Of a DNA stretch of 64,000 nucleotides, positions 7,080 through 53,461 are shown piece by piece. Every line of letters starts with the position of its first letter. Within the stretch, counting starts at the first letter, position 1. The DNA is from Polytrichum commune (taxonomy: Eukaryota; Streptophyta; Polytrichopsida; Polytrichales; Polytrichaceae): assembly GCA_950295325.1 (NCBI GenBank), contig OX485805.1, forward strand, positions 5,764,501 through 5,828,500, read 5' to 3'. Below the pieces are notes generated by a model. That model was given only the letters and a program-made list of their open reading frames with translations, did no database searches and was not told the DNA's origin. The translations under genes were made by a program, and so were the position numbers.

Positions 7080-9477
7080 TGTCGAGGTCACCTTCAAACC
7101 CTCAGCAAACTTAGACGGTGTAACCCGCTGCTGACCGGTTTACATGGAAGTTACTCCCACCAAAATTAGATTCTCTTAGTTTTCAAAACTTGTGAAGGTG
7201 TCCGTTAACTCTTTGTTGACTAATTCTTGTGATCTTTAATTTATCGCTTTTGAAATCCTCTTGGAATCGTTGACCTGAGGTTACAAGTTTATGTTCCCCG
7301 AAATCTAATATTAAAGTGCTCTCTAAGAAACTACTTTCCTTAGTTCTTAATCATCTATTCGCTCTTGCATCTTTCCTGGTTTGAAAGATCTCGCAAGATA
7401 ATCTTATTTCTTCAATTCCGGAATGTTGTATTTGAAGATCCCTTTTTATAAATCTTCAAGGAGAAAGTGCCTTAGGTTTTCAAGATTATGTTCCCCGAAA
7501 TCCTAATGTCGAGGTTAAGTGTTTCAAGGGAAACTCTAAATGTTGCAAACAATATCTTTCATGGTTCGAATGCATCTAATCTTCATTACTTTCCAAGAAT
7601 ATTCCGAGAATGTCTTCATAAAGAGTTTCTAGTTCAAAACTTATTCTTTAACATTATGAAAATCTTGAGAATCATCTTGCCTCTTTAACCTTGATTATAT
7701 TGTTCTGATGGTATCCTTGGTCCTTCAACATTCCAAATTCACTTGAGAATATTTGAGGGATTAGAATCCTTGTTGATTCTAATGTATATGGTAAACCGAT
7801 TTCCACTTAAAGATGTTTGATTACTATCACCCTCATTTATGAGGTATTAAACTCATGGCCTAAATTTCCCCAAGTGTTCCCCTTAGATGCTTTGAAATCC
7901 CCTTAGGCTAATTCCCTTTGAATTGGATTTGGCACCGCGTAATAATTTAGTATCTAGTCATACCCGGTATGACGTGATGGTAAGCCGGTAAGCCCACAAC
8001 TTACCTTCCTCAAATATGAGTGACTTGTGCTTTTACTGTAATAATTTATCTTACTTGGCCGGCTTGAGGTCGGGGATTAACTCGAGTGTACCGCCGAATG
8101 AGATTTCCTCCTCTCTGTAATTATTTCCCTTCGGGTCCTTCGGCTCGAAATTCTCCTTCGTCAAAGGTCTTAGTTACCGGAGCAAACTTAATCCGAAGCT
8201 TTGACCAATTTGCCTTAGTGTAGTAACATGTGCTAATATCCTCCGAGTTAGGATTTGAGAACCTCGGCTAAATATTTTAACACTTTAGAATGCCCTCCGA
8301 GTTAGGGTATGTATTTGCCTCGGCTAGCTATCTTTGTGCATGATTGTCTCCAATGCCCTCCGAGTTAGGGCTTAAGTATGCCTCGGCTACTCGCATTAAT
8401 ATTCCAATGCCCTCCGAGTTAGGGCTCGAATGCCTCGGCTAATCGTATTAGTATTCCAATGCCCTCCGAGTTAGGGCTCGAATGCCTCGGCTACTCGCAT
8501 TAATATTCCAATGCCCTCCGAGTTAGGGCTCGAATGCCTCGGCTAATTGCGATGCTAGCTCGATTGCCCTCCGAGTTAGGGCACGAAAACCTCGGCTAAA
8601 TGTACTAGCTTGAGAGAGTGCTAGAGGCTCCGACACTCATGTAGAGTTTGCGTGTTCAAATGAAGTGTATTAGGTGCCTTAAGTTTGGCTTCTTATATAG
8701 TGTTCAACATCTATCTTTAATTAGATGTGGCGGTTAGGCCTAACTTCCCCTAATGCCACATGTTCATTTTAGGCTATTTTTATCCATGTATCCGGTCACA
8801 GTCTAATTTTAGGCTGACCGGATCTATTTACAGCAGTTATAATGTCCGAATGTAAAATGTACTTATGAAGTTCATTCGTTGGATTTCTTGGCTTAACCTA
8901 GATGTGCCTCGTGGTTCGGTTATCATCCATGGGCCTCCTTCATCCGGAATGCAACTATTCATTTAAAGGGAATAGTTTATGTTCATCTAAAAAGGACTTT
9001 CATCCCTTTTAGGCATGTCTTTCATCTATTTTTGCCTAGGTGTTCACTAGCAACTAACTATCCTACCCTACTTAGTTGCTTGTTCGTTCCCGGCTTGATG
9101 ACGGCGTTCCCGGTGTCGTTCACTTCGTTCCCGAGCCTTCTCGGTGTGTTCCCGTGCGCTCCCCTCGTTCTCTTGCGTTCCCGGGCCGCTACATAACCGG
9201 GAGGCCGGTCCTCATCCGGTCTTCAATGCCCTCGGTGCTCCCCGGCTTGCCACCTGTCCTGTTCTCTCTCTCTTGCCGTTGGCTCTCCTCGATATCCGGC
9301 CGCTCCCACGTCTCCTGCTGTCTCCCGCGTTGCCCTTCTCTCGCGGTCCCTCGATCGCTGCTCCTCGGTGTTCGTCCCTGTTGCTGCTCCTTCGGTGAAC
9401 AACTACTTCTCAGCCCTTCACTCTCCTGCATTTGGCCCCTTAGTCCTTCTTCCCTAATCTTCCTGGGAGGGTGTACA
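7080..9477 (-). repeat. 3' LTR (left copy)
   Basis: This is a direct copy of 24652-27049, with equal length and no difference seen in the stretches compared, including the translations of open frames in both copies. In element (minus) orientation it begins TGTACACCC and ends CTCGACA. The preceding polypurine tract on the minus strand identifies it as the 3' LTR. Plus-strand open frames in it (for example 9076-9558) are antisense to the element and not counted as genes. Confidence 0.95.
8240..8598 (-). repeat. Seven-unit hairpin-forming tandem repeat in the 3' LTR
   Basis: About seven units of 50-60 bp each contain CCTCCGAGTTAGG and, about 12 bases on, CCTCGGCTA. CCGAG and CTCGG are reverse complements, so each unit can fold into a small hairpin. 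The array is an exact counterpart of 25812-26170. Confidence 0.85.
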
Positions 9478-9494
9478 TTTTATTCTCCCCTCTC
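9478..9494 (-). other. Polypurine tract (plus-strand primer site)
   Basis: On the minus strand the 17 bases directly before the 3' LTR read GAGAGGGGAGAATAAAA, almost all purines, followed at once by the LTR start TGTACA. Position and composition fit the primer for plus-strand DNA synthesis. Confidence 0.85.
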
Positions 9495-9522
9495 GGAAAG
9501 AAGCATGTCCTCATGCTTCATT

Positions 9523-12165
9523 TCACTGTTGTTGGACATGTCCTGGTGGATCTGGTAGCCCGATGCGGAGGATGGTGCCGTGATTGACAGTGCCGAATCG
9601 TCTTGTTGTAATTGTGTTTTGTTGCTCGTCCAATGTCTGAGTCACATACTCCTTAAGTTGAAATAAGGATATTGGGATCGATTGATTCGGGAATTGCTCT
9701 AAAAGCCACTGGTGACGCCTTACCGCTTCGAAGCAAATTGCCGTATCCTCTGCTCTTAGGGCATTGATTGCGTCCTGGAAAGTAGTGTTGTGCTGGTGTT
9801 GGAACTTTGCGATCTCAATTCTCTGACTGTGTGTGTAAGGTCGTAGGGAGGGTAGGGCCTCAATGGCAGGGTGTTCCCGCACCTGAATCGCCTGGTGGTG
9901 TCCTAAGAATGCTATGCTCCGGAGTATGTATCTCCTGATAAAGAATGGTGGAGATCCAGTTACCACCTCAATACTCCCAAGGGGTAATTTGATGTTACCC
10001 ACTGCCCACATGAAGGCTAAGGTATCCTTAGCTCTTGGGTTGGCTTGCTGCCACAACTCTCTGAATTGCTCATGGGTGACTGTGGTTCCTTCCTTAAGAA
10101 TGGGTACGTTGCTGGTGAGTAAGTGGAGAGCCCCATATGCATGGTGACACTGCATGATCGATCTCAGGGGTTCTGTGTGGTGGAGGAGCCGCTGATAGAT
10201 CTCCGATCGCGGGTGAATGCGGGATTGAGGTAATCCCATTCGATTGACTGGAATGCCTTGATCGAGTTGGTGTTGTAATTCCTCCTTTTCCTGTTTAATT
10301 ACTTGCAGCTCCTGGTGTAGATCATTGAGTATTTGCTCCGTCGCTCCCTCAGCTAGTGCATGTCTCTCTGTTCGATCCAGAGGTCGTGGCGCACGATGGC
10401 CGAAGTCGGGGTCGGGTTTGGAAGTGGAGGCTGGTTTCTTGGCATCCAAGGCTACCTTCAACTCCCTGTTCTCAGTTCTCAAGCGAGTAAGCTCTGTCTT
10501 GTCCTGTTGTTGGTCTCGGAGTACTTCGGGGGTCTGATGGGTGTGCAGGTTTCGAGCTGCGGCCCCCTCATTGAAATGTTTGAGTTGTGCTCGCATTGCC
10601 GCGAGTTCAGTCTCCTTGGTTTGAAATTGTTGTAAGTTGGCTTGCTCCAGATCTTGAATGGTGGTCAATTGCTCTTGGTTCATGTGGGTGAGGGTCTGAA
10701 CCTCCTTCTTCAGTCTTTCCCGTTCTTCTTGTATCTCAGAAAGTTGGTCGTGCAATTCGAAGGAATCTTCGATGCAGAGATTGTTGAGTTCCTCTGCATC
10801 GAGAAGTTTTTTCTCTAACCTGTCTATTTGAGCATTCTGGGATTGGAAAATGTCCGAGTTTAAGGTACTGGTGCTGCTCTTTGGAAGCTTCGCATGCTCT
10901 TTCAGAGTGGTCTCCCGTTGGATCTTAGAGAATTGAGAGCTTAATTCTCTCAATAGCCTGGGTGGGGCCTTGTTTGCAAGTATAGTGAGTAGGTTTTCCA
11001 ATCTCCTGTGCACATGTTTGACCTGGCTGACAATGTTGGGTATTGCTTCCGGAACCTGCCATGGTTCCTCTGTTTCTAATACCACTGAGCGAGGTGTGTC
11101 TGAGGCGGTTGGTGGTGTCGAGGTGGATGCTTCCTTCTGTCGGTTCTGGTCCGGTTTCACCACCCTGACTGCAGTGTGTAAAGTCGGAGGTGGTATTGGA
11201 ACTGTGGTAAATCTCCTCTTTTTAGGCTGATCCTTTGGTTCAGTTGTGGAGAAGGGCTTGGCCGTATGGAAACCTGCCTCAATTTCCTGCGGCAAGTCCA
11301 TAGCTCCTGCGGCTTTGATCATCAGGGTGAGGTGTGGACCGATGGTGGTCCGTTCTACCTTCACCGGGGTCTGAGAATGTTTCTTGTGTAGTTTTATTAG
11401 CTCAGCCTTTAGCCCATGATAGAATTCTTCAGGCCAGTCTACTGCCTGGCCGTTCACAGCCGCGAGAATCAATTTCGCAAATGAAATAGCAATGTAATTT
11501 TGACCCGCCGTATTGAGGCAAAATAAAGAACTCAGCATTCGGAGTGGTTTCTTTGCACCTGGATACTGACAATCAGAAACTTTGACTGTTACCTGTCCTT
11601 CTGTGGCTGATGTGAGGGATGGAAACAACTCACAGAGTTTCCACTGAGTGCTGGCCTTTACCTTTCGTTTGGTAAGCTCAAAAATGTCCCGAAACTGGGT
11701 TCTCCAATCTGCGGCGATTAAAGGGATGGCCTTTTCCCGTACTGTGGTCAGCATTGTCTCCTCTTGCAGGTTTGCCAATGCTTCGCGAATCAGTGCTTCA
11801 TGCAACACCCCCCACGTGATACGGATTATGAAACCTTCCAAGTTGATTTGACGGAGGAATTTGACTTCCTCAGTCGTGAACTCCTGATGCCTGAGAAGTG
11901 CATCCACCACGAACAGGTATCGCTCAGGTTCTTCTTCTCCTGGTTTCCTCTTCATTTCTTCAATGAAATCTGCCTCCTCGATGTTGGTCACTGCTGCCCC
12001 CAACAATCCCTGATACGTATGGAACTTGCACAAACTCGGCTGCCACTGAAGCTCGCTTGTGTTCCAGTGTACCGAGGTGAAACCTTGGAGACACTTGGCC
12101 TTCAAGTTTTTCCAAAACATTCTCTGCTCGTATTGTTGTGGGGTAATCTCATATAGGTCTTCCAT
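9523..12165 (-). CDS. Extra retrotransposon ORF between pol and 3' LTR: 880-aa coiled-coil protein, unknown function
   Basis: This uninterrupted 880-codon frame sits where Athila-type elements carry an env-like ORF. I recognise no known domain. Residues about 1-300 look globular, with Trp/Cys-rich patches and an LPxEI-type segment. Residues about 300-400 are Pro/Thr/Lys-rich and probably disordered. Residues about 410-575 and 613-650 are strongly heptad-like, rich in Leu/Glu/Gln/Lys (for example RLEKKLLDAEELNNL), and should form long coiled coils. The last 200 residues are again globular. No signal peptide or clear membrane span is visible, which argues against a classical envelope protein. 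A multimerising structural or transport role is conceivable but is inference only. The frame is intact, as expected for a young insertion. It ends 29 bp from the polypurine tract and is separated from pol by 1.7 kb. Confidence 0.8.
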   Translation of the reverse strand: MEDLYEITPQQYEQRMFWKNLKAKCLQGFTSVHWNTSELQWQPSLCKFHTYQGLLGAAVTNIEEADFIEEMKRKPGEEEPERYLFVVDALLRHQEFTTEEVKFLRQINLEGFIIRITWGVLHEALIREALANLQEETMLTTVREKAIPLIAADWRTQFRDIFELTKRKVKASTQWKLCELFPSLTSATEGQVTVKVSDCQYPGAKKPLRMLSSLFCLNTAGQNYIAISFAKLILAAVNGQAVDWPEEFYHGLKAELIKLHKKHSQTPVKVERTTIGPHLTLMIKAAGAMDLPQEIEAGFHTAKPFSTTEPKDQPKKRRFTTVPIPPPTLHTAVRVVKPDQNRQKEASTSTPPTASDTPRSVVLETEEPWQVPEAIPNIVSQVKHVHRRLENLLTILANKAPPRLLRELSSQFSKIQRETTLKEHAKLPKSSTSTLNSDIFQSQNAQIDRLEKKLLDAEELNNLCIEDSFELHDQLSEIQEERERLKKEVQTLTHMNQEQLTTIQDLEQANLQQFQTKETELAAMRAQLKHFNEGAAARNLHTHQTPEVLRDQQQDKTELTRLRTENRELKVALDAKKPASTSKPDPDFGHRAPRPLDRTERHALAEGATEQILNDLHQELQVIKQEKEELQHQLDQGIPVNRMGLPQSRIHPRSEIYQRLLHHTEPLRSIMQCHHAYGALHLLTSNVPILKEGTTVTHEQFRELWQQANPRAKDTLAFMWAVGNIKLPLGSIEVVTGSPPFFIRRYILRSIAFLGHHQAIQVREHPAIEALPSLRPYTHSQRIEIAKFQHQHNTTFQDAINALRAEDTAICFEAVRRHQWLLEQFPNQSIPISLFQLKEYVTQTLDEQQNTITTRRFGTVNHGTILRIGLPDPPGHVQQQ

Positions 12166-13852: not shown

Positions 13853-16447
13853 TCATTTGTGAGTTGGTTCCACCCCAGTTGGCTCCAAGCCAAGTAAGGC
13901 GGGGTAGGCATGGGTTGTATTCCTCATGGGTGTTGTGGTTCCCGAATTTTCTCCCGGGCTTGGTGGTAGTTCCCATTGGGATACGGGTTGGCATCGTATG
14001 GTATGTAGGTTGGTTTCTTTTTCGTCCCTTTGGTCATGCCTTATGAGGTTAAAGGTATCTCTCTCTTGTTGTAATTGTATGGTATGTAGGTTGGTTTCCT
14101 TTTTCTTCCGTTGGTCGTGCCTTATGGGGTTTAAGGTATCTTTTGGATGAATATTCTCTTGTTTTGAGGGATGTATGTGGTACACTTCTAGCATGACCCT
14201 ATGCATTTCCAAATCTTCAGCATCTAAGATTTCTTGACTTTGGTAGGAAGTGGAACCAGTATGTGAAATGGTTTCCTTATTCGATTGAGAAGATGTGGTG
14301 ATGGGAATTGGTGTAGTACTAGTCCCTTTGTATAAAGGATTTTGTTTTGCTCGTATTTCCGTTTCTAAAAGGTGGCATGCTAGAATTTGTAAGGCATAAG
14401 CCTGAGTCGTTTCGGGCTCTTGGTATGGTTTTAGTTTGTTCATGTTGACTCGTCCCAAACTATCCCCTTGTAGGGTGGTAACATCCACTGATCCATTATC
14501 ATAGACTTGTTGAATTAGGTAAGGTCCTGCCCATCGTATTTTGAACTTGCCCGGCCCGGGTATTTTATGGCGCAAGTGCCATAAGATTCGTTGGCCCGGA
14601 TAAAAGTGTGTTTTGGGTGTAGTATTTTGCTCCCCATCTTCGTTACTTCGAAAGTTTTGACTTTTCTCCATAGCTCGAGTAGGATCCTCTTTCAAAGTGT
14701 CGTGTTTCTTAGCCTCCTTTCGTGGTGGCTTGGTTATCCCAAGGTCACAATGTTGACATTGTCTCTTCGCCCGAGGTTTGTCATGTCTTTCCTTTCGTAA
14801 TAGCTGCATATGTGTCATGTTTTCTTCGGCTTCATGTCTGGTTAAATCCATAGTTCTGAGCTGTTCCATTCTCTTCTCGAGTATGGGATGAAACTCTTGA
14901 TTCCGTTTCTGATAGACGTCGGGGTGAAGGTAAGCCATAGGTAACAAGGCTTCCGTCCCGAACACTAATGAGAACGGAGTGTGCTTGGTAGTAACCTTAT
15001 AGGCTGTCCTATAGGCCCAAAGTGCTGCATGTAACTTGGTGTCCCAATCTGTTCGATTGGCGTTAACCATTTTGGTCAAGGCAATCTTAATTACCTTGTT
15101 GGTACTCTCTGCTTGCCCGTTTGCTTGTGGGTAGTAAGTGGTTGACTTCCGATGTAAAATCATGAACTCTTGAGTAAGCACTTTGATAGTGTCATTGATA
15201 AAGTGACTTCCTTGGTCGCTCACGAACTCCAATGGACAACCAAATTTTGTAATAATTTCCTCAAAAAGGAATTTGGCTGCGGATTTTGCCGTGTTATCCT
15301 TTAAGGCTCTGGCTTCCACCCATTTAGTGGTGTAGTCGGTAGCCGTGATAATGTACCGATTCTTGGTACCTTTAGCTGGCGGGTTGACCGGTCCGATGAA
15401 GTCCAAACCCCATTTCTGAAATACCTCTGTGGGCATTGTGGGATGTAAGGGTTGGAGATTGGTTGAGATTTTTGGGCCAACCCTTTGACAGATATCACAT
15501 TGAGTGCAATAAAGATGGACATCTTTCTTCATGGTGGGCCACCAATACAAGGCAGTTAAAACCTTGTGTAAGGTGATATTGGCTGAGAAGTGTCCTCCAG
15601 CTATCCCCTCATGAGCTTCCGCAATGATGGCTGTAGTTATCGGTCCAACTACGCATATCCTTCGTATACCATCGGGCCCTTCTTTTATCAGAGTCCCGTT
15701 GTGGTTTAGCATGTATGGACGACTTCGTATGGCGATTTGTTGTCGCTGCGTGGTTGAAGCTTCCGTGGTCAGCCTCCCGTGGGTTAAGTAATCGATGAAA
15801 GGTGTTCTCCAGTCCGGTTCTTCTTGGTCCTTGATCGTGACAGTTTTGCAGTCAACAACATGCTCCGGGGTTTCATTGGGCCAACAAACTCTACACTTCT
15901 TGCATAGATGGTCAATGTCTGGAGGAATTGTGGGCCACCAATAAGGCCCTTGGGTGACTTGTAAAATCATTTCATCCATTGAAAGATGAGGGTACCGTTG
16001 ATTGTGAATGGTTGTCAACCATTCGATTCCTCTTTCTTGAGAGATGCACAGTCTCGTTTGCCCATTTGCAAAACTTCGCTTTAACTTTCCTTTCTTTAGA
16101 AAGTAATGAGGTAATTCCGTCCGTAAGGTACCCAACTCTTCATGAAAGGCGAAGTCGCTTAGTTCCATTGGGTTTTTGAGGTATTGAATGATTGGTTCTC
16201 TCCAATCATGTGTCTTCTGATTCTGGAGGAAGATAGTCCCGTAGTTCTCGATTTTAAGGCCTGACGTTGCAGTGATCTGACATGGTTTACATTCGTCAAT
16301 TAAGTGGTTTATATCTGAAGAAATGGTGGGCCACCAATACGGGCCTTTGTGTACTTGTGCGAGTACTTCTTTTCTCGTTAGATGCGGTATTTGATATTCA
16401 TGTATCCTCTTCACCCAATCCTTGGCGTCTTCTTTGGCCACGCACAT
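13853..16447 (-). CDS. pol: Pol continuation: zinc-binding modules 6(part)-8 and integrase core
   Basis: This 864-codon frame is in the same reading frame as the upstream gag-pol and is separated from it only by the TGA at 16469-16471, so the ATG at 16447 is not a natural start. It completes module 6 (HEYQIPHL, ECKPC), then carries module 7 (from residue 81, DWREPIIQYL; KCRVC) and module 8 (from 212, DWRTPFIDYL). Module 8 is the canonical integrase N-terminal H2C2 domain (H-x6-H, CDIC). The catalytic core follows with D349 (LDFIGPV), D411 (VSDQGSHF) and E447 (NGQAES), giving a D-x35-E spacing. A GPY/F-type segment (GPGKFKIRWAGPYLI) comes next, then a long Ser/Thr/His-rich tail without a chromodomain. 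All integrase catalytic residues are intact. Expression requires stop readthrough or a source copy without the TGA. Confidence 0.9.
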   Translation of the reverse strand: MCVAKEDAKDWVKRIHEYQIPHLTRKEVLAQVHKGPYWWPTISSDINHLIDECKPCQITATSGLKIENYGTIFLQNQKTHDWREPIIQYLKNPMELSDFAFHEELGTLRTELPHYFLKKGKLKRSFANGQTRLCISQERGIEWLTTIHNQRYPHLSMDEMILQVTQGPYWWPTIPPDIDHLCKKCRVCWPNETPEHVVDCKTVTIKDQEEPDWRTPFIDYLTHGRLTTEASTTQRQQIAIRSRPYMLNHNGTLIKEGPDGIRRICVVGPITTAIIAEAHEGIAGGHFSANITLHKVLTALYWWPTMKKDVHLYCTQCDICQRVGPKISTNLQPLHPTMPTEVFQKWGLDFIGPVNPPAKGTKNRYIITATDYTTKWVEARALKDNTAKSAAKFLFEEIITKFGCPLEFVSDQGSHFINDTIKVLTQEFMILHRKSTTYYPQANGQAESTNKVIKIALTKMVNANRTDWDTKLHAALWAYRTAYKVTTKHTPFSLVFGTEALLPMAYLHPDVYQKRNQEFHPILEKRMEQLRTMDLTRHEAEENMTHMQLLRKERHDKPRAKRQCQHCDLGITKPPRKEAKKHDTLKEDPTRAMEKSQNFRSNEDGEQNTTPKTHFYPGQRILWHLRHKIPGPGKFKIRWAGPYLIQQVYDNGSVDVTTLQGDSLGRVNMNKLKPYQEPETTQAYALQILACHLLETEIRAKQNPLYKGTSTTPIPITTSSQSNKETISHTGSTSYQSQEILDAEDLEMHRVMLEVYHIHPSKQENIHPKDTLNPIRHDQRKKKETNLHTIQLQQERDTFNLIRHDQRDEKETNLHTIRCQPVSQWELPPSPGENSGTTTPMRNTTHAYPALLGLEPTGVEPTHK

Positions 16448-18688
16448 CTTAACTTCCCCATTTGGTAATCAATATTTCAACCCATCTTCGGCTATGAAAT
16501 ACGTCTCGGTGTTAAGGCTGAGTAATCCCAACTCTTCATGTGTACCAACGTGGTTTAACTCCTCAAAGCTCTTTAGTCGTTGTGTGATTGGTTGTCTCCA
16601 ATCTGGCTTAGGTGTTGGTTTTGGTGAAGATGAGTTTTGATTTTCCCTGGGGCATTCCTTCGGTGTCTCCGTTCCTCTGCAAGTTTTGCAGTATCTTAAA
16701 TGGTTGCACACGTCATTTCCCCATGTCGGCCACCAGTACGCTCCTGTGGCCACGGCCTTCCATGTTTCTATGGCAGCCAAGTGGGGTTCGCTTTCCCCAT
16801 GTACCTTGGCTAGGTACCTGGGAACTTGAGTCTCGGGGATACAAACTTGGTTACCTTTTCCTCCTTTGCGTATCCGTTGTAACGTGCCGTTGCTGAACAC
16901 AAAGTACTTCTGGCTTTGTGTTACCGTCCTTTTTACCTCTGGTGGTAGGGTTTGGTCGAAGATCTCCTTGCATGTTAGGTACTCCATGTAAGGACGTCTC
17001 CAATCTGCAGCAACCCCTCTTAGTAGGTCTTTCCGGTCCAGAGGTGATGGTGTCTTCGGGTCTTTTGAAAACTCTGCTTGGTTGCTGCATACCGTACATT
17101 TCCGACGGCATAAGCTGTTAATGTCGGCTCCGCATGTGGGCCACCAATATGGCCCAAACATGATTAGGTGCCACATTATCTCTTCGCTAAGATGTTCCCC
17201 GGATTCCGTAACATGTAATTCTTGCAGGTATTTGTTGATTTCCCGTCCCGCAATACATATCTTCACGTCTCCATCCGAGAATATCCTCTTTAGTTTTCCT
17301 TCTTCAATGAAATATTTTTGGCTTTGTCGAATTATCCTTTTGTATTGATTCTTCGAGATGTGGGGTCCTTTCAAGTACCCGTATGTGAGGTATTCTATTA
17401 ACAACCTCCTCCAATCCTTGTTGTCAGGTGTTTGTACGATGACGGACCTGCAAATTATGTTATGGAGCGGGCCTCGAAATCTTCTTCGACAAGACGGGCA
17501 GTCGTACATAATGTAGATTTGTATGTCACACAGCCCCATCGTGGGCCACCACCGATTCCCTTGCAAGCATCGAAGCCAAGTTTGTTGGTCGTCTAAGTGT
17601 CTCTGCTGGTGTATGTGCATTTTCCCTATCCAATGCTTTATTTGGTAACCAGCGATGCAAATTTTAGCCATTCCATTCTTCTCCAGTTTTCGAAGTTTTC
17701 CCTTTTCCAAAGTGAAAATTTCGCTCTCTCGTATGGTTTCCCGCTGCCCTCTTTGAGTTTCCATGTCCATTTTGAGTCTTCCATGCGCTAGATATTCGAC
17801 TAGAGGTGTTCTCCAATCGTTAAAAGTTTCTTTGTATGGTATAATGTCCGCCCCGTTACCCGGTTCCGAAGAGCTTGCTTCTGTGTGTAACTCTTCTCCA
17901 TGCTCTTCGCACTCGATGCATAGTGTGATGAGTAGTGAGACATCTTCCGTGATAGTTGGCCACCAATACGGCCCTTGTAGAACTAATTTCCTGGTGGCAT
18001 TTACTGAAAGATGTTGATTTTCTCGTATATGGAGGGTCTTGATGTAACTCCTCACATATCTTCCAGGCATACATTTCTTGGTAATGCCGTTATGAAACAT
18101 GCGATGTAACTCCCCTTCAATGAGTATGAAAAATTTGCTTCGGTACACTACCAATCTTCTTTCTTCTTTGGGTAGGGAACTCACCCAGGGGGTTCCGTGT
18201 GTTAGACAAGTTAGGTATTGGACATATGGTGTTGTCCAATCCGATTCTGCTTTTCCTGTCATGTCTTCTTGCGCTTCCAAAGGTTGTACAGGGAGTGGAT
18301 CGTCGTCGTCCTCTGAATCTTGTGGGGTAATATTCCCGGTTTCGTTTCCTTGGTCAACAACCTTACATACCGGACATTCTTGACAGTATTCCAGTACGTC
18401 TCTTCGTCGAGTAGGCCACCAATATGGGGTGCGTAGTATGTAATGCCATGTTGAAGTTAGATTGTAGTGTATCCCATCTTGCTCATGGGCTTCGCTTATG
18501 ACTTCTTCAATGATGTCCCCGGCTATACACTCATGTATCTTGCCGGAGATACTGACTCGCTTGAGCTTTGCGTCGTCTAGGACGAAGGGCTCACTCAGTT
18601 GCCTGATCTTGTTTTGTTCTCGTGGGGTAGCTAGAGCTGACAACAATCTTCCGTGGGTAAGGTACTCAATGAAAGGTGCTCGCCAGTC
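15480..18688 (-). repeat. Eight tandem protein modules: RNase H-integrase linker plus H2C2 zinc-binding domain
   Basis: Modules begin at a DW[RT] signature at minus-strand positions 18688, 18241, 17818, 17416, 17005, 16603, 16207 and 15814, giving unit lengths of 149, 141, 134, 137, 134, 132 and 131 residues; the eighth runs into the DDE core. Each has DW-x-x-P/L...YL, a strand like YFIEEGKLKR, a C-I/V-A segment, H-x5/6-H, a [YR]WWPT signature and C-x2-C. The Cys pairs in order sit in CPVC, CIEC, CPSC, CTVC, CKTC, CKPC, CRVC and CDIC. Normal Ty3/gypsy pol has one such module. The copies are strongly diverged from each other, so the amplification is old, yet all zinc ligands persist. Confidence 0.9.
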
Positions 18689-21600
18689 TTCGAATGGTTG
18701 CACGTAAACCATGAATAAACTTGCGTCCGGAAACTGGTCTTGTACCCCTGAGGGGTCTTCTCCGCTTTCTATCCTTGATAGGTGGTCAGCCATTACATGG
18801 CTCCTACCAGGCTTATAAACTACTTCAAAATCGTACTCTTGAAGTAACAACATCCATCTCGCGATTCGCCCGGACACCACTGGTCGATTGACCAAGTATA
18901 GCAGGGCTTGATGGTCCACGTAGAACACGAAATGGTTTGCTAGCAAATAGTGTCTGAATTTGCCCACTGAGTAGATCATTGCTAGGGCTTCACGCTCCGT
19001 CGTACTATAGTTCTTCTCCGCACTGTTTAAGAGTCGACTAACGTAATGAATTGGGGAATCTCTATCCCTGTGTATGTTCTGAGCCAAAACGGCTCCAATT
19101 GCGATGTTCGAGGCATCGCAGTGTACGTGGAATTCCATGGTCCAATTGGGAGTTACCAAAATGGGTGTAGTTGTTAACATTTTCTTCACTTCTTCGAAGG
19201 CCTCTTGACAAGATTTTGTCCAAATGTACTTCTCTCCTTTCTTGAGTAGTAAGTACAAAGGCCGAGTGATCTCAGCATACATCCATATGAATTTCCGATG
19301 GTATGTAGCTTGGCCTAGAAAACTCCGAATTCCTCGTACGGTGGTTGGTGGAGGTAATCCTTTGATAACTTCCACCTTCTTCGGATCCACCAACAATCCT
19401 TCTTTGCATACCACGTGCCCTAAGAGTCTCCCTGAATTAACGCAGAAAAAACACTTCTCTGGATTTAGGCTTACTCCATTTTCGCGGCACTTAATGAGAC
19501 ATTTTTCCAAATGCTCAATGTGGTCTTCTTTGGTTCCGTAAACTGTAAAGTCATCCAAAAACACCTTCATGAATTTGTCGAGGTAGTCGGCAAATATCTT
19601 CATCATGCCCCTTTGGAAGGTGGCTGGTGCACACATTAATCCAAAGGGCATCACCCTGTACGCAAACGCTCCGTATTCGGTGATGAAAGACGTCTTCAGC
19701 TGATCTTCTAAGGCGATCATGATTTGGTTGTAGCCACTGTACCCGTCCATTAGCGTGTACATTTCGTGTCCTGCAACCGCTTCCAAGATGGATTCTGTAA
19801 ATGGTAATGGAAAAGGGTCCACCTTCGTGACTGCATTCAGTTTTCGATAGTCGACACACACTCGCAGTTTTCCATTCTTTTTGGGTACAATCACGATTGG
19901 TGACAGCCATTCGGTTTTATCCACGGGATATATGAATCCTGCCTCCAAGTACTTGTCTATCTCTTCTTTCACCTTGGCTGCGTAATTGGGGTTCATCCTA
20001 TAACGCATTTGTCGTATCGGCTTGGCTTCCGGCTGTAGCTCAATCTTATGCTCGCACACATGAGGGGGTATTCCCTTCATGTCCTTGTAGGTGAAAGCAA
20101 ACACATCCTTGAAATTTAGAAGTAGCTCTTTCACTTTTGCTTCGTATTCTCCCAAGTCTTTCGCTATCTTGACTAACTTAGGCTCTTCCGGAGTTCCTAA
20201 GTTTAAAGTCTTTACTAAGTCTTCATCTTCAACTGTCCACCCCGCTATCTTCTTCCCTTTGACGGCTTCTGAGGCAGGGGTGCGATCAATCTCCATCTCT
20301 CCTTCTTTTGCTTTGTAAAACTGGGAGGGATATACCGGTTTCTCTTCCATAGCTTCTTGTTCTTTCTTCGTTGCTTTTCTTGACCGAGGTTTCTCGGTTT
20401 CACCTTTTCGTGATCCAGGTTTTCCTGGCTCGTGGTGAGTATCAATCTTCACTGTGTTGCAGCTTGGTTCTCTTAGCTTCTTCAAGCTTTTCAAATCAAA
20501 GTTCCCCATGGGTAGCAGTTCTGGGAAAGCTTCATAGACTATCGCTTCTTCTTCATCGGACAATCCCATTTCCCAGTCATAGTCTTCCCAATTTAAGGGT
20601 CTCTTGGCCGGTGGTAGTGCCGGTGTTCGTTGGGTGCTTATCTCCACCTTGTTTCCACCCTGCGTTAAGGTCAATTTGTTGAGGGGCCAATCATGTTGTG
20701 CTTGGGCCTCTTTTAACCATGGCCTCCCTAGCAAAAGGGAGTAACTGTCTTCGGTACTCACCATGTCTATGACGGTGAGTGTCGTTCCAATCACGATGCC
20801 GCCGACATCCAGTCGTACGTCTCGGATGATTCCCTTGGGCATGACCTTTCTTTGGTCAGCCATTTTTATGGTGAATGGTGCAGGCTCTATCTTCTTGAGC
20901 CCCAATTTCCTTCTTAATGTGTCAGTGATGATGTTCACTCCTGATCCACCATCGATCAATGCATTCGGTATTCGCTTATTCTTCATGATTACCGATATCA
21001 TAGGCATTTCCTCATCGAATGCCTTTGCTGTCACTTGGTATGTAGAGGTCGGTTTCTCAGACGTTCCTTCTTGGCTGGTAAGGGCAGCCATTACCCGTTT
21101 CCTACAATAGGGGGCTATCTCAAGTAGTTGCCCTATTGAAATATTTGCTTTTGTGTGCTTCATTACATTCTCTAAGATCTCATCTACCCTTGCCTGGGTA
21201 GTCTTTGGGACGCCTCCTTTCTCGGGGCTCCGTTCTTTAGGCTTCCCTGCCTCTCCTTCTTCTGGGTACCAAGGTGCGAACTCTTCTGGCGTGGGTAGAG
21301 CTTCGCCCTCTTCCTCCTGTATTTCCGTGATAGTTTTACTCACCTCCCGGTGGACTCTCCTATCAGCTTCCCATTCATCGCTGTTGGCTCCTATCGGCCT
21401 TTCTTTTTCCTTATCATCAACGTGTTCATCTTGCTTGAACACCTCTTTGTCTTCATCGGGGTGTGCGTCCGGCTCACGCACAACATCTCTCTCTTCATCA
21501 GAGTTCTCATCTCTTTGTTGGTGGTCTTCCTGCTCCTCAGAGCTGCCACTGCTCGAATCGTCGTCATCATCATTATCGTCACTTTCGCTATCTTCCTTGC

Positions 21601-23788
21601 CTCCCTCGGCCGCAGCCCGTTGGGCTCTTGTCATCACACACACAGCAGGGGACACCACGTTGGCTCCCACGGCTGGCTTAGCATTCCTGAATCCACTCAA
21701 CTCCTGTTGGTGTTTGATAAAGTGCGGACAGTCCGTCTTCCGGTGTCCCTTTTGATGACAGTAAAAACACTCGTCGGGGTTGCCATCTCGCTGAGGTACG
21801 CCAGTGTACCCAGTTCTCGGCGCTGCCTTGGTGTTGGTACTGTCCATCAAGCTTCGGTTGTATTCATGATTGATAGGTCCTCTGGGACCTCCTTGGTAGG
21901 GGTATCCATCTTCCCTCCGGTAATCTTGGCTCTTGTAGGGGTAGTAGCCTTCCCTCCTGAAGTCATCTCTGTAGTTGTCGTTGGGCCTAAAATAGGGCCG
22001 TTCATCTCTGCGATATTCATTTCCCCGGTAGGGGCCTCCCGCCTCCCGCCGGTAATCGCCTTCCCTGAATGGGGACCTTTCATCTCTTCTGAATTCTATC
22101 CTTGGTTCAAACCGAACCCTTCTGTCATTCGTTTCTCGCCTAGGAGTGATCGCTCCTGGCCTTCGATTGGATTGGGGTTGTATTTGATTTACCCCATATC
22201 TTCTATCCCGGGGTCTCCGAGATTCATGCCGTTCGTAAACACACTCGCTAGTGTTGTGGGTTAAGCTGTTACAATTCGTACATTGTTTCATTTGACACTC
22301 TTGCACGTAGTGCCCTTCATTTCGGCATCGCCGACAAATTATGCCTGTTCTGAATTTCCGGCTTCCCAAAGCCAGTCCTTCTATCTCTTCTCTGAGAGTC
22401 TTGATGTCATCTTTGGTTGAGTTATTTCTTCTACTCTTTGTCTTCTTTTTCTTTTTTCGCCGTTCTTCCTCTGAGTCATCACTTGACTCCTCACTGTCAC
22501 TCTCATCGAGGAACCTCCCTTTCCTCATCTGTCCTAATTCCAACTTCCGTGCCGATGCTTTTGCTTCATCCAAGTCATCGGTCGGCATTAAATCAATGTG
22601 CTTAGCGTATTCCTTTTTCAACCCATTAAGGAACCATGTTTTCTTGAATTGATTACTAGGTTGAGGGTGAATCTTTGATGATTCCACCATAACCCTTTCA
22701 TAAAACTCTTCGACGGTCTCGTCTTTCTTCTGTTTGAGGGAGCCTAGGCTTTCAATGACTTCTCCCTCTGATTTCTTTGATCTGAATCTCATAAGGAAGG
22801 CAGTTCCTAAACTTGGCCAGTCCGGAAAATGGTTTGGGCCAAATTGGGAGTACCATTCCAAGGCTCGTTTCTTTAAGGTAACAGGGAATAGTTGTAATTT
22901 GATCGCGTCTGTGTCTTCTTGATTTGCGAGACACACGTTGTTGAACTCTTGCATATACGTATCGGGATCCGTCTTACCCTTGTAGGTTGGTAAGGGAACC
23001 TTCGTTCTTCGGGGTTGTGCGGCCATGTTGACTGGGTTGGGTAAGTTGCTTCCAACCCCAGGTGGGTTGTTGCTCTTGGCTGGTGGTGGGCTGACTCCGG
23101 TGTTAATTCCAAGGTTTTGGAATTGCTTAAGTTTCTCTTCAAACTTCCTCCGTAGGTCGTCAAACTCTTCTTGACTGATGGGTCTTTTTACTCCTTGGTC
23201 CGTGTTATCTTGTGTGCTCTCTCCAGAGTAGCCGGAGTCTTCAAAGCTGAATTGTTCTTCAAAATTTCTTTTCAGTTTCTCCCAACTCCTTGGGTTGAAA
23301 AGATTTTCCTCGGCCGTGTTTCCTTGATGGGTGTTGTCCTGCGCTTTATCTACTGGGGTATGTGTACCCGTGTTTTTACCTGTACCTTTTGTTCTCAACA
23401 CATAGGTTCCAAGAGGGGTACCTATTATCAGATCGTCCTCATCTTCCTCGTTTTCTCCCTGATTCAAGTTCTCTTCATCCAAGTCTTCATGTCCTTTGCT
23501 TGTCTCACCATTACCTCCTCCTTCACTTTGACTTCTATGGTGGCTGGGCTTAGGGGTGTGGGAACCTACTGCCGGTGGTTCAGAGGCGTATCGGCTCTCT
23601 TCACTTCCTGTAGTTCTTTGTCTTGTACGCCTAGCGTACCTCTCTTCTCTTTCTCTCTTGAGTTGTTCAGTCCGCCTTATGCGGTCTTCTCTGGAATGCA
23701 TGCGCTCCACATGCTTCTTCTCTGCCTCCTGTTCTCTAGGAGTTGGTGATGTACTTCTCGTACTAGATGTATCCTCATGATCAACCAT
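16469..23788 (-). CDS. gag-pol: Gag-pol polyprotein: gag, protease, RT, RNase H, zinc-binding modules 1-6
   Basis: A single 2,439-codon frame. Gag (residues about 1-700) has a capsid-like region (ALEWYSQF...FLMRFRSKK) and three CX2CX4HX4C zinc knuckles at residues 485, 503 and 674, with Arg/Asp/Tyr-rich linkers. An acidic Ser/Asp/Glu tract follows. The aspartic protease has its active site at D946 (IDGGSGV). Reverse transcriptase follows, with VCVDYRKLNAVT, MPFGLMCAPATFQ and catalytic LDD at 1411-1413. RNase H begins near D1558 (HCDASNIAIGAVLAQ) and includes TTEREALA and YVDHQALLYL. From D1701 five whole linker/zinc modules and the start of a sixth follow. Gag and pol are fused without frameshift. 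The frame ends in TGA at 16469-16471 in the middle of module 6; the reading frame then stays open for 864 more codons. The start ATG (MVDHED) is the first after the leader ORF. Confidence 0.93.
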   Translation of the reverse strand: MVDHEDTSSTRSTSPTPREQEAEKKHVERMHSREDRIRRTEQLKREREERYARRTRQRTTGSEESRYASEPPAVGSHTPKPSHHRSQSEGGGNGETSKGHEDLDEENLNQGENEEDEDDLIIGTPLGTYVLRTKGTGKNTGTHTPVDKAQDNTHQGNTAEENLFNPRSWEKLKRNFEEQFSFEDSGYSGESTQDNTDQGVKRPISQEEFDDLRRKFEEKLKQFQNLGINTGVSPPPAKSNNPPGVGSNLPNPVNMAAQPRRTKVPLPTYKGKTDPDTYMQEFNNVCLANQEDTDAIKLQLFPVTLKKRALEWYSQFGPNHFPDWPSLGTAFLMRFRSKKSEGEVIESLGSLKQKKDETVEEFYERVMVESSKIHPQPSNQFKKTWFLNGLKKEYAKHIDLMPTDDLDEAKASARKLELGQMRKGRFLDESDSEESSDDSEEERRKKKKKTKSRRNNSTKDDIKTLREEIEGLALGSRKFRTGIICRRCRNEGHYVQECQMKQCTNCNSLTHNTSECVYERHESRRPRDRRYGVNQIQPQSNRRPGAITPRRETNDRRVRFEPRIEFRRDERSPFREGDYRREAGGPYRGNEYRRDERPYFRPNDNYRDDFRREGYYPYKSQDYRREDGYPYQGGPRGPINHEYNRSLMDSTNTKAAPRTGYTGVPQRDGNPDECFYCHQKGHRKTDCPHFIKHQQELSGFRNAKPAVGANVVSPAVCVMTRAQRAAAEGGKEDSESDDNDDDDDSSSGSSEEQEDHQQRDENSDEERDVVREPDAHPDEDKEVFKQDEHVDDKEKERPIGANSDEWEADRRVHREVSKTITEIQEEEGEALPTPEEFAPWYPEEGEAGKPKERSPEKGGVPKTTQARVDEILENVMKHTKANISIGQLLEIAPYCRKRVMAALTSQEGTSEKPTSTYQVTAKAFDEEMPMISVIMKNKRIPNALIDGGSGVNIITDTLRRKLGLKKIEPAPFTIKMADQRKVMPKGIIRDVRLDVGGIVIGTTLTVIDMVSTEDSYSLLLGRPWLKEAQAQHDWPLNKLTLTQGGNKVEISTQRTPALPPAKRPLNWEDYDWEMGLSDEEEAIVYEAFPELLPMGNFDLKSLKKLREPSCNTVKIDTHHEPGKPGSRKGETEKPRSRKATKKEQEAMEEKPVYPSQFYKAKEGEMEIDRTPASEAVKGKKIAGWTVEDEDLVKTLNLGTPEEPKLVKIAKDLGEYEAKVKELLLNFKDVFAFTYKDMKGIPPHVCEHKIELQPEAKPIRQMRYRMNPNYAAKVKEEIDKYLEAGFIYPVDKTEWLSPIVIVPKKNGKLRVCVDYRKLNAVTKVDPFPLPFTESILEAVAGHEMYTLMDGYSGYNQIMIALEDQLKTSFITEYGAFAYRVMPFGLMCAPATFQRGMMKIFADYLDKFMKVFLDDFTVYGTKEDHIEHLEKCLIKCRENGVSLNPEKCFFCVNSGRLLGHVVCKEGLLVDPKKVEVIKGLPPPTTVRGIRSFLGQATYHRKFIWMYAEITRPLYLLLKKGEKYIWTKSCQEAFEEVKKMLTTTPILVTPNWTMEFHVHCDASNIAIGAVLAQNIHRDRDSPIHYVSRLLNSAEKNYSTTEREALAMIYSVGKFRHYLLANHFVFYVDHQALLYLVNRPVVSGRIARWMLLLQEYDFEVVYKPGRSHVMADHLSRIESGEDPSGVQDQFPDASLFMVYVQPFEDWRAPFIEYLTHGRLLSALATPREQNKIRQLSEPFVLDDAKLKRVSISGKIHECIAGDIIEEVISEAHEQDGIHYNLTSTWHYILRTPYWWPTRRRDVLEYCQECPVCKVVDQGNETGNITPQDSEDDDDPLPVQPLEAQEDMTGKAESDWTTPYVQYLTCLTHGTPWVSSLPKEERRLVVYRSKFFILIEGELHRMFHNGITKKCMPGRYVRSYIKTLHIRENQHLSVNATRKLVLQGPYWWPTITEDVSLLITLCIECEEHGEELHTEASSSEPGNGADIIPYKETFNDWRTPLVEYLAHGRLKMDMETQRGQRETIRESEIFTLEKGKLRKLEKNGMAKICIAGYQIKHWIGKMHIHQQRHLDDQQTWLRCLQGNRWWPTMGLCDIQIYIMYDCPSCRRRFRGPLHNIICRSVIVQTPDNKDWRRLLIEYLTYGYLKGPHISKNQYKRIIRQSQKYFIEEGKLKRIFSDGDVKICIAGREINKYLQELHVTESGEHLSEEIMWHLIMFGPYWWPTCGADINSLCRRKCTVCSNQAEFSKDPKTPSPLDRKDLLRGVAADWRRPYMEYLTCKEIFDQTLPPEVKRTVTQSQKYFVFSNGTLQRIRKGGKGNQVCIPETQVPRYLAKVHGESEPHLAAIETWKAVATGAYWWPTWGNDVCNHLRYCKTCRGTETPKECPRENQNSSSPKPTPKPDWRQPITQRLKSFEELNHVGTHEELGLLSLNTETYFIAEDGLKY

Positions 23789-23903
23789 GTACGCTACTGA
23801 GAGTGTTTCGGGGTCATGGTCTTGGCCGGCTCTCTCAGCTCTGACGCCTCAATGCACCCGTACTTCACCTGTTTGCCTATGGATGATTACTTGGACACTT
23901 GGT

Positions 23904-24542
23904 TTAAGTTCTTGTTTCTTGCTCCTGCTCCTGCCCCAAATTCAAGTTCCCCACACTACCATGCAAACCACCATACAGAGGTAAGAATATCTTTCTAACA
24001 TACAAATCGTACAACAAACCTTCTTGTTTGTAATGGTAACCTCGATGTCGCGTTGCTCCTAACACATAGGCGCTAATTCCTTCTCTTCCGTCATTCCATA
24101 TCTTAGAGAAAATTACTGCCTGCAGCTCCTCTGGTAACTCAGCAATGTTTCTCTCAAATTGTGACCGGTACGTGAATCCTATTTCTCTTTCTTGATGTAA
24201 TTGCCAGACCTTGTCTTCATACATCTTCTGCATATCCCACATGAGATCGTGGAATCTCCTGGTTCCTTCCCATTTCTTCAAGGTTGTTCGACTGGTATCA
24301 TACTTTGGATAATCCCATGGCCACTTACCCAAAGCCAAGACTTCTTGTTGCTTTGAGTTCTCTTCTTCTCCTCCTTCGCTTCCTTGCACGTAGAATCCTC
24401 GGAGATTAAACTGTTCGAGTCTCCGTTGCACTGCTCTCTCTATACGATCTTGCTTCCGTGGTCCGAAGGTTTCTTCCCATTTGCGTCTCTCATTCATCTC
24501 CTGTTGGAGTCTTCCACAATATAGGTAGTACATGTTCTCCAT
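23904..24542 (-). CDS. 212-aa leader ORF between PBS and gag
   Basis: This frame begins about 86 bases downstream of the PBS and ends 115 bases before the gag-pol ATG, in a different frame from gag. The product is highly charged and Trp/Tyr-rich (MENMYYLYCGRLQQEMNERR, later KWPWDYPKYD and YKQEGLLYDLYV), with no membrane span and no domain I recognise. Ogre-type Ty3/gypsy elements also carry an ORF upstream of gag, but I see no direct similarity. It is the first long ORF on the genomic RNA, so gag-pol translation would need splicing, reinitiation or internal entry. An intron that joins it to gag-pol cannot be excluded. Confidence 0.65.
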   Translation of the reverse strand: MENMYYLYCGRLQQEMNERRKWEETFGPRKQDRIERAVQRRLEQFNLRGFYVQGSEGGEEENSKQQEVLALGKWPWDYPKYDTSRTTLKKWEGTRRFHDLMWDMQKMYEDKVWQLHQEREIGFTYRSQFERNIAELPEELQAVIFSKIWNDGREGISAYVLGATRHRGYHYKQEGLLYDLYVRKIFLPLYGGLHGSVGNLNLGQEQEQETRT

Positions 24543-24627
24543 TGACGCCTGCCATCCAACTTACTCCCAAATATTGTATGTTGTAAATTTTATCTTCTAA
24601 TCTAGGTAAGTGTAACGTCCATGTGGC

Positions 24628-24648
24628 GAATCCCCAGCATGGTCGCCA
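24628..24648 (-). other. Primer binding site, tRNA-Asp-like
   Basis: Three bases inside the 5' LTR on the minus strand lies TGGCGACCATGCTGGGGATT. This resembles the complement of plant tRNA-Asp 3' ends used by Athila/Tat elements (TGGCGCCGTTGCCGGGGA, from memory), with several mismatches. Position and the TGG start are as expected for a PBS; the exact primer is uncertain. Confidence 0.6.
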
Positions 24649-25811
24649 AAATGTCGAGGTCACCTTCAAACCCTCAGCAAACTTAGACGGTGTAACCCGC
24701 TGCTGACCGGTTTACATGGAAGTTACTCCCACCAAAATTAGATTCTCTTAGTTTTCAAAACTTGTGAAGGTGTCCGTTAACTCTTTGTTGACTAATTCTT
24801 GTGATCTTTAATTTATCGCTTTTGAAATCCTCTTGGAATCGTTGACCTGAGGTTACAAGTTTATGTTCCCCGAAATCTAATATTAAAGTGCTCTCTAAGA
24901 AACTACTTTCCTTAGTTCTTAATCATCTATTCGCTCTTGCATCTTTCCTGGTTTGAAAGATCTCGCAAGATAATCTTATTTCTTCAATTCCGGAATGTTG
25001 TATTTGAAGATCCCTTTTTATAAATCTTCAAGGAGAAAGTGCCTTAGGTTTTCAAGATTATGTTCCCCGAAATCCTAATGTCGAGGTTAAGTGTTTCAAG
25101 GGAAACTCTAAATGTTGCAAACAATATCTTTCATGGTTCGAATGCATCTAATCTTCATTACTTTCCAAGAATATTCCGAGAATGTCTTCATAAAGAGTTT
25201 CTAGTTCAAAACTTATTCTTTAACATTATGAAAATCTTGAGAATCATCTTGCCTCTTTAACCTTGATTATATTGTTCTGATGGTATCCTTGGTCCTTCAA
25301 CATTCCAAATTCACTTGAGAATATTTGAGGGATTAGAATCCTTGTTGATTCTAATGTATATGGTAAACCGATTTCCACTTAAAGATGTTTGATTACTATC
25401 ACCCTCATTTATGAGGTATTAAACTCATGGCCTAAATTTCCCCAAGTGTTCCCCTTAGATGCTTTGAAATCCCCTTAGGCTAATTCCCTTTGAATTGGAT
25501 TTGGCACCGCGTAATAATTTAGTATCTAGTCATACCCGGTATGACGTGATGGTAAGCCGGTAAGCCCACAACTTACCTTCCTCAAATATGAGTGACTTGT
25601 GCTTTTACTGTAATAATTTATCTTACTTGGCCGGCTTGAGGTCGGGGATTAACTCGAGTGTACCGCCGAATGAGATTTCCTCCTCTCTGTAATTATTTCC
25701 CTTCGGGTCCTTCGGCTCGAAATTCTCCTTCGTCAAAGGTCTTAGTTACCGGAGCAAACTTAATCCGAAGCTTTGACCAATTTGCCTTAGTGTAGTAACA
25801 TGTGCTAATAT

Positions 25812-26170
25812 CCTCCGAGTTAGGATTTGAGAACCTCGGCTAAATATTTTAACACTTTAGAATGCCCTCCGAGTTAGGGTATGTATTTGCCTCGGCTAGC
25901 TATCTTTGTGCATGATTGTCTCCAATGCCCTCCGAGTTAGGGCTTAAGTATGCCTCGGCTACTCGCATTAATATTCCAATGCCCTCCGAGTTAGGGCTCG
26001 AATGCCTCGGCTAATCGTATTAGTATTCCAATGCCCTCCGAGTTAGGGCTCGAATGCCTCGGCTACTCGCATTAATATTCCAATGCCCTCCGAGTTAGGG
26101 CTCGAATGCCTCGGCTAATTGCGATGCTAGCTCGATTGCCCTCCGAGTTAGGGCACGAAAACCTCGGCTA
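25812..26170 (-). repeat. Seven-unit hairpin-forming tandem repeat in the 5' LTR
   Basis: Same array as 8240-8598. It starts about 90 bases downstream of the TATA box in the element orientation, so it should be part of the R/U5 leader RNA, where each unit can pair CCGAG with CTCGG. Confidence 0.85.
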
Positions 26171-26263
26171 AATGTACTAGCTTGAGAGAGTGCTAGAGGC
26201 TCCGACACTCATGTAGAGTTTGCGTGTTCAAATGAAGTGTATTAGGTGCCTTAAGTTTGGCTT

Positions 26264-26272
26264 CTTATATAG
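26264..26272 (-). promoter_or_regulatory. TATA box of the 5' LTR
   Basis: The minus strand reads CTATATAAG, a good TATA box, about 780 bases into the LTR from its 5' end. Transcription would start near 26235-26245. The same sequence lies at 8692-8700 in the 3' LTR. Confidence 0.55.
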
Positions 26273-53456: not shown

Positions 53457-53461
53457 GCTAA

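What the first reader, a model, noticed from the sequence alone, without database searches (positions are those of the whole stretch)
15480..18688. Eight tandem copies of the integrase linker/H2C2 zinc-binding module inside one pol protein
Seen directly: between RNase H and the DDE core the pattern DW[RT]..P...YL / [YR]WWPT / C-x2-C repeats eight times at 131-149 residue spacing, and every copy keeps H-x5/6-H and C-x2-C. Known: Ty3/gypsy integrases carry one such N-terminal domain (integrase H2C2 family). The copies are widely diverged yet none has lost a zinc ligand, which argues for selection over a long time. Inference: the array may add nucleic-acid or integrase-multimer contacts, act as a target-site reader, or be cleaved into small zinc proteins. 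I know of no described element with this architecture.
Basis: partly seen in the sequence, partly recalled or inferred. Interest (0 to 1): 0.92.

Follow-up and report, generated by a model that had tools for sequence, protein, structure and literature searches.

The report
Integrase zinc modules in tandem arrays
A jumping element in a eukaryotic, probably plant, genome carries eight copies in a row of the zinc-binding front part of its integration enzyme, where known relatives carry one; sister elements carry five or eleven, and selection has acted to keep the copies, so the array probably does a job in how the element inserts itself.

Summary
Window 7080-27049 is a 19.97-kb Ty3/gypsy-type LTR retrotransposon (minus strand; 2398-bp LTRs, 0 mismatches). 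Between RNase H and the integrase core lie eight modules of 131-149 aa, each an NED+NTD (linker plus HHCC) unit. A TGA in module 6 splits this copy's pol frame.

The array belongs to the family, not to this copy. Among 150 integrase places scored in the same 408-Mb genome, 39 are at least 91% identical; 38 have array modules upstream and one is broken inside module 8. Eleven modules occur in 8 of 31 loci examined, and a more distant family has five (3 loci examined). Two loci of the next identity band have one.

dN/dS per module is 0.04-0.18; five of seven linkers are near 0.4. Zinc ligands are mostly kept, but module 6 lost them in 10 of 30 copies. Trees point to tandem duplication of the integrase's own N-terminal region, separate from a two-module group.

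Inferred mechanism: a multivalent integrase N-terminus contacting LTR DNA, partner integrases or chromatin, tolerant of number. Ten searches of one open-access library (listings only, plus passages of three papers) showed no earlier description. New variant of a known kind.

The parts
24652..27049 (-). 5' LTR, 2398 bp
   Evidence: 0 mismatches to the 3' LTR; TG...CA ends; flanking 5-mers GCTAT/ACTAT, an imperfect target-site duplication
24631..24648 (-). Probable primer binding site, 3 nt after the 5' LTR
   Evidence: sequence; resemblance to a plant tRNA 3' end is recalled, not tested
23904..24542 (-). 212-aa ORF upstream of gag, function unknown
   Evidence: no Pfam match at E up to 1
16469..23788 (-). 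gag-pro-RT-RNase H plus M1 to the first part of M6 (2439 aa)
22616..22894 (-). Retrotransposon gag domain
   Evidence: PF03732, E 3e-09
20711..20983 (-). Aspartic protease, weak match
   Evidence: PF13650/PF13975, E 0.002-0.005, below cut-off
19412..19888 (-). Reverse transcriptase
   Evidence: PF00078, E 1.6e-26
18833..19222 (-). RNase H
   Evidence: PF17917/PF17919
18716..18733 (-). RNase H-integrase junction motif FPDASL, 15 aa before M1
   Evidence: not between modules in any of 27 multi-module proteins; seen before the first module in 8 of them, 11 being cut off there and 8 without it
18242..18688 (-). Module M1 (149 aa, ends in acidic linker)
   Evidence: dN/dS 0.08
17819..18241 (-). Module M2
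   Evidence: dN/dS 0.16
17417..17818 (-). Module M3 (no Pfam hit alone)
   Evidence: M3-M8 profile match 98%; dN/dS 0.11
17006..17416 (-). Module M4
   Evidence: dN/dS 0.13
16604..17005 (-). Module M5
   Evidence: dN/dS 0.15
16208..16603 (-). Module M6, interrupted by the TGA at 16469-16471
   Evidence: dN/dS 0.18
15815..16207 (-). Module M7
   Evidence: dN/dS 0.12
15488..15814 (-). Module M8, the integrase's own N-terminal NED+NTD, to its CxxC
   Evidence: 57.8 bits PF17921; dN/dS 0.04
15128..15430 (-). Integrase catalytic core (rve)
   Evidence: PF00665, E 3e-10; dN/dS 0.01
13853..16468 (-). Second open stretch: rest of M6, M7, M8, integrase core and C-terminal part
9523..12165 (-). 880-aa ORF downstream of pol, in pol sense, function unknown
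   Evidence: only sub-cut-off Pfam matches
9478..9494 (-). Polypurine-like tract next to the 3' LTR
7080..9477 (-). 3' LTR, 2398 bp

Best explanation
SHOWN: the element belongs to a family of LTR retrotransposons whose integrase N-terminal region (NED helices, beta hairpin, HHCC zinc bundle) occurs in arrays of 5, 8 or 11 units, under purifying selection and joined mostly by weakly constrained linkers. INFERRED: the units arose by tandem duplication inside the integrase gene. The array begins right after the RNase H-integrase junction, so it is part of the integrase, which becomes a beads-on-a-string protein with one catalytic core at its C-terminal end. In Ty3 this unit helps hold the LTRs; in retroviral integrases it also contacts partner subunits (the latter recalled). 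The extra units therefore most likely act as a multivalent platform that supplies in one chain contacts with LTR DNA, partner integrases or host chromatin, contacts that other integrases get from extra subunits or host factors. Number can change by in-frame block duplication or recombination, so exact count is not critical. In M6 the fold is constrained even where zinc ligands were lost. Confidence in the architecture and the selection is about 0.97; the figure below is for the mechanism.
For: Eight modules at regular spacing. In 16 protein fragments of the close family all 58 module segments detected occur in consecutive M1..M8 order, each best matching its own number (my tally). 38 of 39 close integrase cores have array modules upstream. 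dN/dS by ratio of sums: M1 0.08, M2 0.16, M3 0.11, M4 0.13, M5 0.15, M6 0.18, M7 0.12, M8 0.04, IN 0.01, RH 0.03; linkers after M3-M7 0.39-0.46. Ligands kept at 199 of 206 positions against 2009 of 2611 other zinc-core positions in relatives. Module fold. Junction motif before M1 and not between modules. Two loci of the next identity band in the same genome have one module in that place. [quoted passage not shown]
Against: No biochemistry. Module net charges run from -13 to +9, so they are not uniformly basic as a nonspecific DNA binder might be. Number tolerance (5/8/11) and the M6 copies without zinc ligands (10 of 30) fit loose or even gratuitous function. One of 105 M1 pairs has dN/dS above 1. 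Protease sites are unknown, so it is not shown that the array stays on the integrase. The junction motif was seen before the first module in only 8 of 27 multi-module proteins, 11 being cut off there.
Confidence: 0.45

Rival explanations
1. The array is mainly a target or chromatin reader: individual modules bind host proteins or DNA and steer where the element inserts.
For: The equivalent Ty3 region is reported to interact with TFIIIC (passage of PMC8632968). Modules are diverged from each other (24-44% identity), as expected if they bind different partners. The linkers after M1 and M2 are acidic and more constrained (0.15-0.17) than the other linkers.
Against: No insertion-site preference could be tested: the LTR search did not complete, and the one target duplication seen is unremarkable.
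Confidence: 0.2
2. Constructive neutral expansion: tandem duplication is tolerated, and modules are constrained only because a misfolded one would spoil the polyprotein.
For: Array size differs among families and copies in one genome; L022, L051 and L052 join first-block M2-M3 to a window-like M4-M8. M6 lost its zinc ligands in 10 of 30 copies while dN/dS among them stayed low (0.23).
Against: Zinc motifs are kept in 192 of 200 scored copies of M1-M5, M7 and M8. Relatives at 59-79% identity to the window's array share their modules in order. The array costs over 3 kb, yet none of the 39 close integrase cores belongs to an unbroken copy seen without it.
Confidence: 0.2
3. The protease cuts the array into several small zinc proteins that act apart from integrase, for example as nucleic-acid chaperones.
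For: Linkers of 23-40 aa between folded units could be cleaved.
Against: Linkers after M3-M7 evolve fast (dN/dS 0.39-0.46; 33-52% identity in relatives). I saw no recurring motif by eye; protease sites can be variable, so this is weak.
Confidence: 0.12

Closest known systems
Ty3 integrase (PDB 7q5b)
   Different: One NED-NTD, not eight; has a chromodomain (legend seen), none found here
Prototype foamy virus and MLV integrases
   Different: One N-terminal unit per protein (recalled)
Plant non-chromovirus Ty3/gypsy elements (OTA: Athila, Tat) as surveyed in PMC6317226 (passages read)
   Same: gag-pro-RT-RH-IN order, large element, extra ORFs, no chromodomain found
   Different: Tat elements carry an archaeal RNase H, in Ogre and Retand between RH and INT; here that place holds zinc modules. 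In that paper's main text 'zinc' and 'H2C2' occur 0 times
Two-module integrases found here (13 of 120 listed homologues)
   Same: A second NED-NTD ahead of the usual one
   Different: Separate duplication: first modules form their own clade (100/99), joined to their second modules only weakly (83/28). Their integrase cores form a clade (100/99) apart from the five array rows; that clade also holds Adiantum rows with one or no module detected

Membership tests
Ty3/gypsy LTR retrotransposon | Paired LTRs, primer binding site, polypurine tract | tested here: met
   LTRs by comparison; PBS and PPT by position and look only
Ty3/gypsy LTR retrotransposon | gag - protease - RT - RNase H - integrase order | tested here: met
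   protease match below Pfam cut-off
Chromovirus | Chromodomain at the integrase C-terminus | tested here: not met
   No chromodomain at Pfam E up to 1
Tat (OTA) | Archaeal-type RNase H | tested here: not met
   No second RNase H family (PF13456, accession recalled) at Pfam E up to 1; definition from PMC6317226
Athila (OTA) | Place in RT/RH/INT phylogeny with Athila | not tested
   No reference set at hand
Phygy/Selgy | Rather short elements whose polyprotein fills nearly the whole internal part | tested here: not met
   19.97 kb with two further ORFs; definition
Integrase_H2C2 (PF17921) | Each module scores over 25.5 bits | tested here: inconclusive
   5 of 8 modules pass, M4 and M7 just below, M3 none; M3 linked by profile comparison
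Integrase NED-NTD fold | An upstream module superposes on a solved integrase N-terminal domain | tested here: met
Integrase NED-NTD fold | Same for M1-M4 | tested here: inconclusive
   Model pLDDT 31; only sequence and profile evidence
Integrase NTD | Zinc binding | not testable with these tools
   Ligands present; no metal data

The most novel reading that the evidence does not exclude
A covalent intasome: the extra NED-NTD units replace the outer integrase subunits that retroviruses recruit as separate molecules, so one polypeptide brings its own synapsis scaffold. Scaffold size evolves by in-frame block duplication and recombination (5, 8, 11 units), and single beads can lose zinc and become purely structural.
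Probability: 0.25. Interest if true: 0.95.

Novelty: new variant of a known kind. Interest (0 to 1): 0.85.

Why it matters
The integrase N-terminal domain is treated as a single-copy part of a three- or four-domain enzyme. A lineage that stacks 5, 8 or 11 of them and keeps them under purifying selection gives a natural experiment on what that domain does in synapsis, multimerisation and target choice. Several array sizes, and a variant of one module without zinc ligands, coexist in one genome, so the question becomes directly testable.

Tried and rejected
Artefact of this copy: rejected; relatives share the array. Recent DNA-level tandem repeat: rejected; no repeat of 60 nt or more (seed 20) inside the array, and modules are 24-44% identical. 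Conserved stop-codon readthrough in M6: rejected; copies L010 and L011 and the relatives that cover the site have no stop there. One duplication shared with the two-module group: not supported. Structure of M1-M6a: model useless. First protein search with the long ORF found nothing. Relatives in viral and prokaryote collections: none. Host: not identified; that seven large contigs suggest a moss such as Polytrichaceae is recall, and one paper search gave nothing.

Literature: all ten searches were of an open-access library. I saw listings with abstract beginnings only (20 of 678 papers), and passages of PMC6317226, PMC11963269 and PMC8632968. None that I saw describes a tandem integrase H2C2/NTD array. 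Subscription papers are not held, so this is not proof of absence.

Caveats on counts: pairwise dN/dS (Nei-Gojobori) used 17 representatives over 5% apart, including broken copies; pairs are not independent; dS is often near saturation; saturated pairs, pairs with dS of 0.05 or less and alignments under 60 codons were dropped. The Fisher p ignores relatedness. One search had cross-matched modules and is replaced. The 5-module count was checked in 3 of 29 loci of its integrase band, and one module in 2 of 82 loci of the next band; the bands are my tally, which scores only 150 of 2744 candidates. One search scores 60 of 1072 candidates. In one search the two-module clade also holds two Adiantum rows with one module detected.

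Full report
WHAT IS THERE. The finding sits in an LTR retrotransposon on the minus strand, window 7080-27049 (19,970 bp). Its two 2398-bp LTRs are identical (0 mismatches), so the insertion is recent. In element order: LTR, probable primer binding site, a 212-aa ORF, a 2439-aa frame with gag, a weak protease match, RT and RNase H, then zinc modules, the integrase core and C-terminal part, an 880-aa ORF of unknown function, a polypurine-like tract and LTR.

THE ARRAY. Eight modules start at DW[RT] at 18688, 18241, 17818, 17416, 17005, 16603, 16207 and 15814, spaced 149, 141, 134, 137, 134, 132 and 131 aa. All keep H-x5/6-H, WWPT and C-x2-C. Pfam accepts 5 of 8 above its cut-off, with M4 and M7 just below and M3 unseen, but all 28 pairs align to each other and M3 matches M8 by profile. 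The repeat is the whole N-terminal region of integrase (NED helices, hairpin, HHCC bundle). A TGA at 16469-16471 interrupts M6 in this copy; copies L010 and L011, 99-100% identical over M1-M6a, have no stop there.

RELATIVES ELSEWHERE. Of the best 120 listed homologues of the second open stretch (235 found), 93 have one module, 13 two, 8 three to six and 6 none. A search with the array found 18 proteins. In 16 fragments of the close family, all 58 module segments detected run in consecutive order and each best matches its own number (tally). Overlapping fragments span RNase H to M3 (P0125), M1 to M7 (P0009) and M3 to the integrase core (P0005). A distant relative (P0008) has four modules of which only the last matches one of ours clearly.

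THE SAME GENOME. The window lies in an assembly of 407.8 Mb in 64 contigs. The array protein gave 72 matches from 60 scored candidates. Among 31 distinct loci examined, 8 have eleven modules in the order M1-M2-M3-M1-M2-M3-M4..M8 (L031, L039-L044, L048; L048 changes frame in the array). Three (L022, L051, L052) have eight modules in which M2 and M3 are of the first-block type (78-88% identity to it against 51-66% to the second block; M1 only slightly nearer) joined to window-like M4-M8. The other 20 follow the window's order as far as they go, several with stops or frame shifts. A more distant family (L045-L047) has five modules, A-E, where A groups with M1 (91/88), D with M6/M7 (92/88) and E with M8. 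By integrase core (150 scored places; my tally) there are 39 places at 91-100% identity, 29 at 73-85% and 82 at 50-57%. Of the 39, 37 have an array match within 8 kb upstream; of the other two, one has M5-M8 with frame shifts and one is cut inside M8. Two of the 82 were examined (54% and 57% identity): each has exactly one module between RNase H and integrase. Eight further, more distant loci, L001-L008, some of them broken, also show one.

ORIGIN. In the module trees M8 groups with ordinary integrase-adjacent modules, while M1-M7 and the extra modules of the five-module family lie on the other side of a strongly supported split (99/98, 100/100); deeper branching inside that side is poorly resolved and the trees are midpoint-rooted. 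The RNase H-integrase junction motif lies just before M1; it was not found between modules in any of 27 multi-module proteins and was found before the first module in 8 of them (11 of the rest are cut off there). The simplest reading is tandem duplication inside the integrase gene, growing to 5, 8 and 11. The two-module elements look like a separate event.

SELECTION. Across 17 representatives more than 5% apart, dN/dS (ratio of sums) is RH 0.03, M1 0.08, M2 0.16, M3 0.11, M4 0.13, M5 0.15, M6 0.18, M7 0.12, M8 0.04, integrase core 0.01; the extra block gives 0.15, 0.14 and 0.11 from 8-9 pairs each; one of 105 M1 pairs exceeds 1. Within M1-M7 the NED and zinc parts are at 0.07-0.16, while linkers after M3-M7 are at 0.39-0.46 and those after M1 and M2 at 0.15-0.17. 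In relatives the ligand positions are kept in 199 of 206 cases against 2009 of 2611 other zinc-core positions; 5 of the 7 losses are in M6 of P0003 and P0006. In the genome, complete zinc motifs by pattern: M1 28/28, M2 28/28, M3 26/28, M4 27/30, M5 28/31, M6 18/30, M7 28/28, M8 27/27, extra block 33/33. Ten of the twelve M6 failures share the same kind of loss and look like one subfamily; M6 is still constrained among them (0.23, against 0.17 among zinc-keeping copies). So constraint does not always rest on zinc. Module C of the five-module family also lacks a complete site (read by eye).

HOW IT MOST LIKELY WORKS. Shown: arrays of constrained NED-NTD units on the integrase side of the junction, variable in number. 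Inferred: they stay attached to integrase and add multivalent contacts to LTR DNA, partner integrases or chromatin. [quoted passage not shown] Against a strict structural role: array size varies and one bead loses its zinc ligands. Neutral expansion with folding constraint and a target-reader role are the main rivals. Cleavage into small zinc proteins is least supported.

NOVELTY. Ten paper searches, seen as listings, showed no description of tandem integrase N-terminal domains (listed in Tried and rejected); only an open-access library was searched. I rate it a new variant of a known kind: a Ty3/gypsy-type element with a new integrase architecture. The host is not identified; the homologues listed with an organism's name are land plants (fern, liverworts, conifer, angiosperms).

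Noticed in passing
16469-16471: In-frame TGA inside M6 of a copy with identical LTRs; other copies of the genome have no stop there.
   Followed up: partly
9523-12165: 880-aa ORF downstream of pol, in pol sense, with only sub-cut-off Pfam matches (one of them a coiled coil) and no match among the 132 fetched proteins.
   Followed up: partly
8349-8599 and 25921-26171: 52-bp tandem repeat, 4.8 copies, inside each LTR.
   Followed up: no
13987-14141: 74-bp direct repeat (85% identity) in the C-terminal part of the integrase frame.
   Followed up: no
G000:C5:27129871 and 27147091; C3:53512870 and 53540364: Pairs of copies on one strand with equal or nearly equal scores, 17.2 and 27.5 kb apart; the first spacing is close to this element's LTR-to-LTR distance of 17.6 kb, suggesting tandem elements sharing an LTR.
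   Followed up: no
G000:C5:13223365 (-) and 13233798 (+): Two array copies with equal scores in inverted orientation about 10 kb apart.
   Followed up: no
L009 against L013, L014, L017 and others: dS differs strongly between parts of one pair (L009-L013: 0.04 in RNase H, 0.61 in M5), as if copies were recombinants.
   Followed up: partly
P0010, P0012, P0014-P0016 and others: Integrases with two NED-NTD modules, apparently a separate duplication, in a clade that also holds Adiantum fern sequences.
   Followed up: partly
P0007: A relative with M5-M7 fused to the C-terminal part, lacking M8 and the integrase core: a deletion derivative that kept part of the array.
   Followed up: no
29017-29979: S1 RNA-binding domain exon of a likely host gene.
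   Followed up: no
33531-36355 and 51844-54085: Decayed coding stretches that look Helitron-like and LINE-like by eye (recalled, not tested; no Pfam match over cut-off).
   Followed up: no
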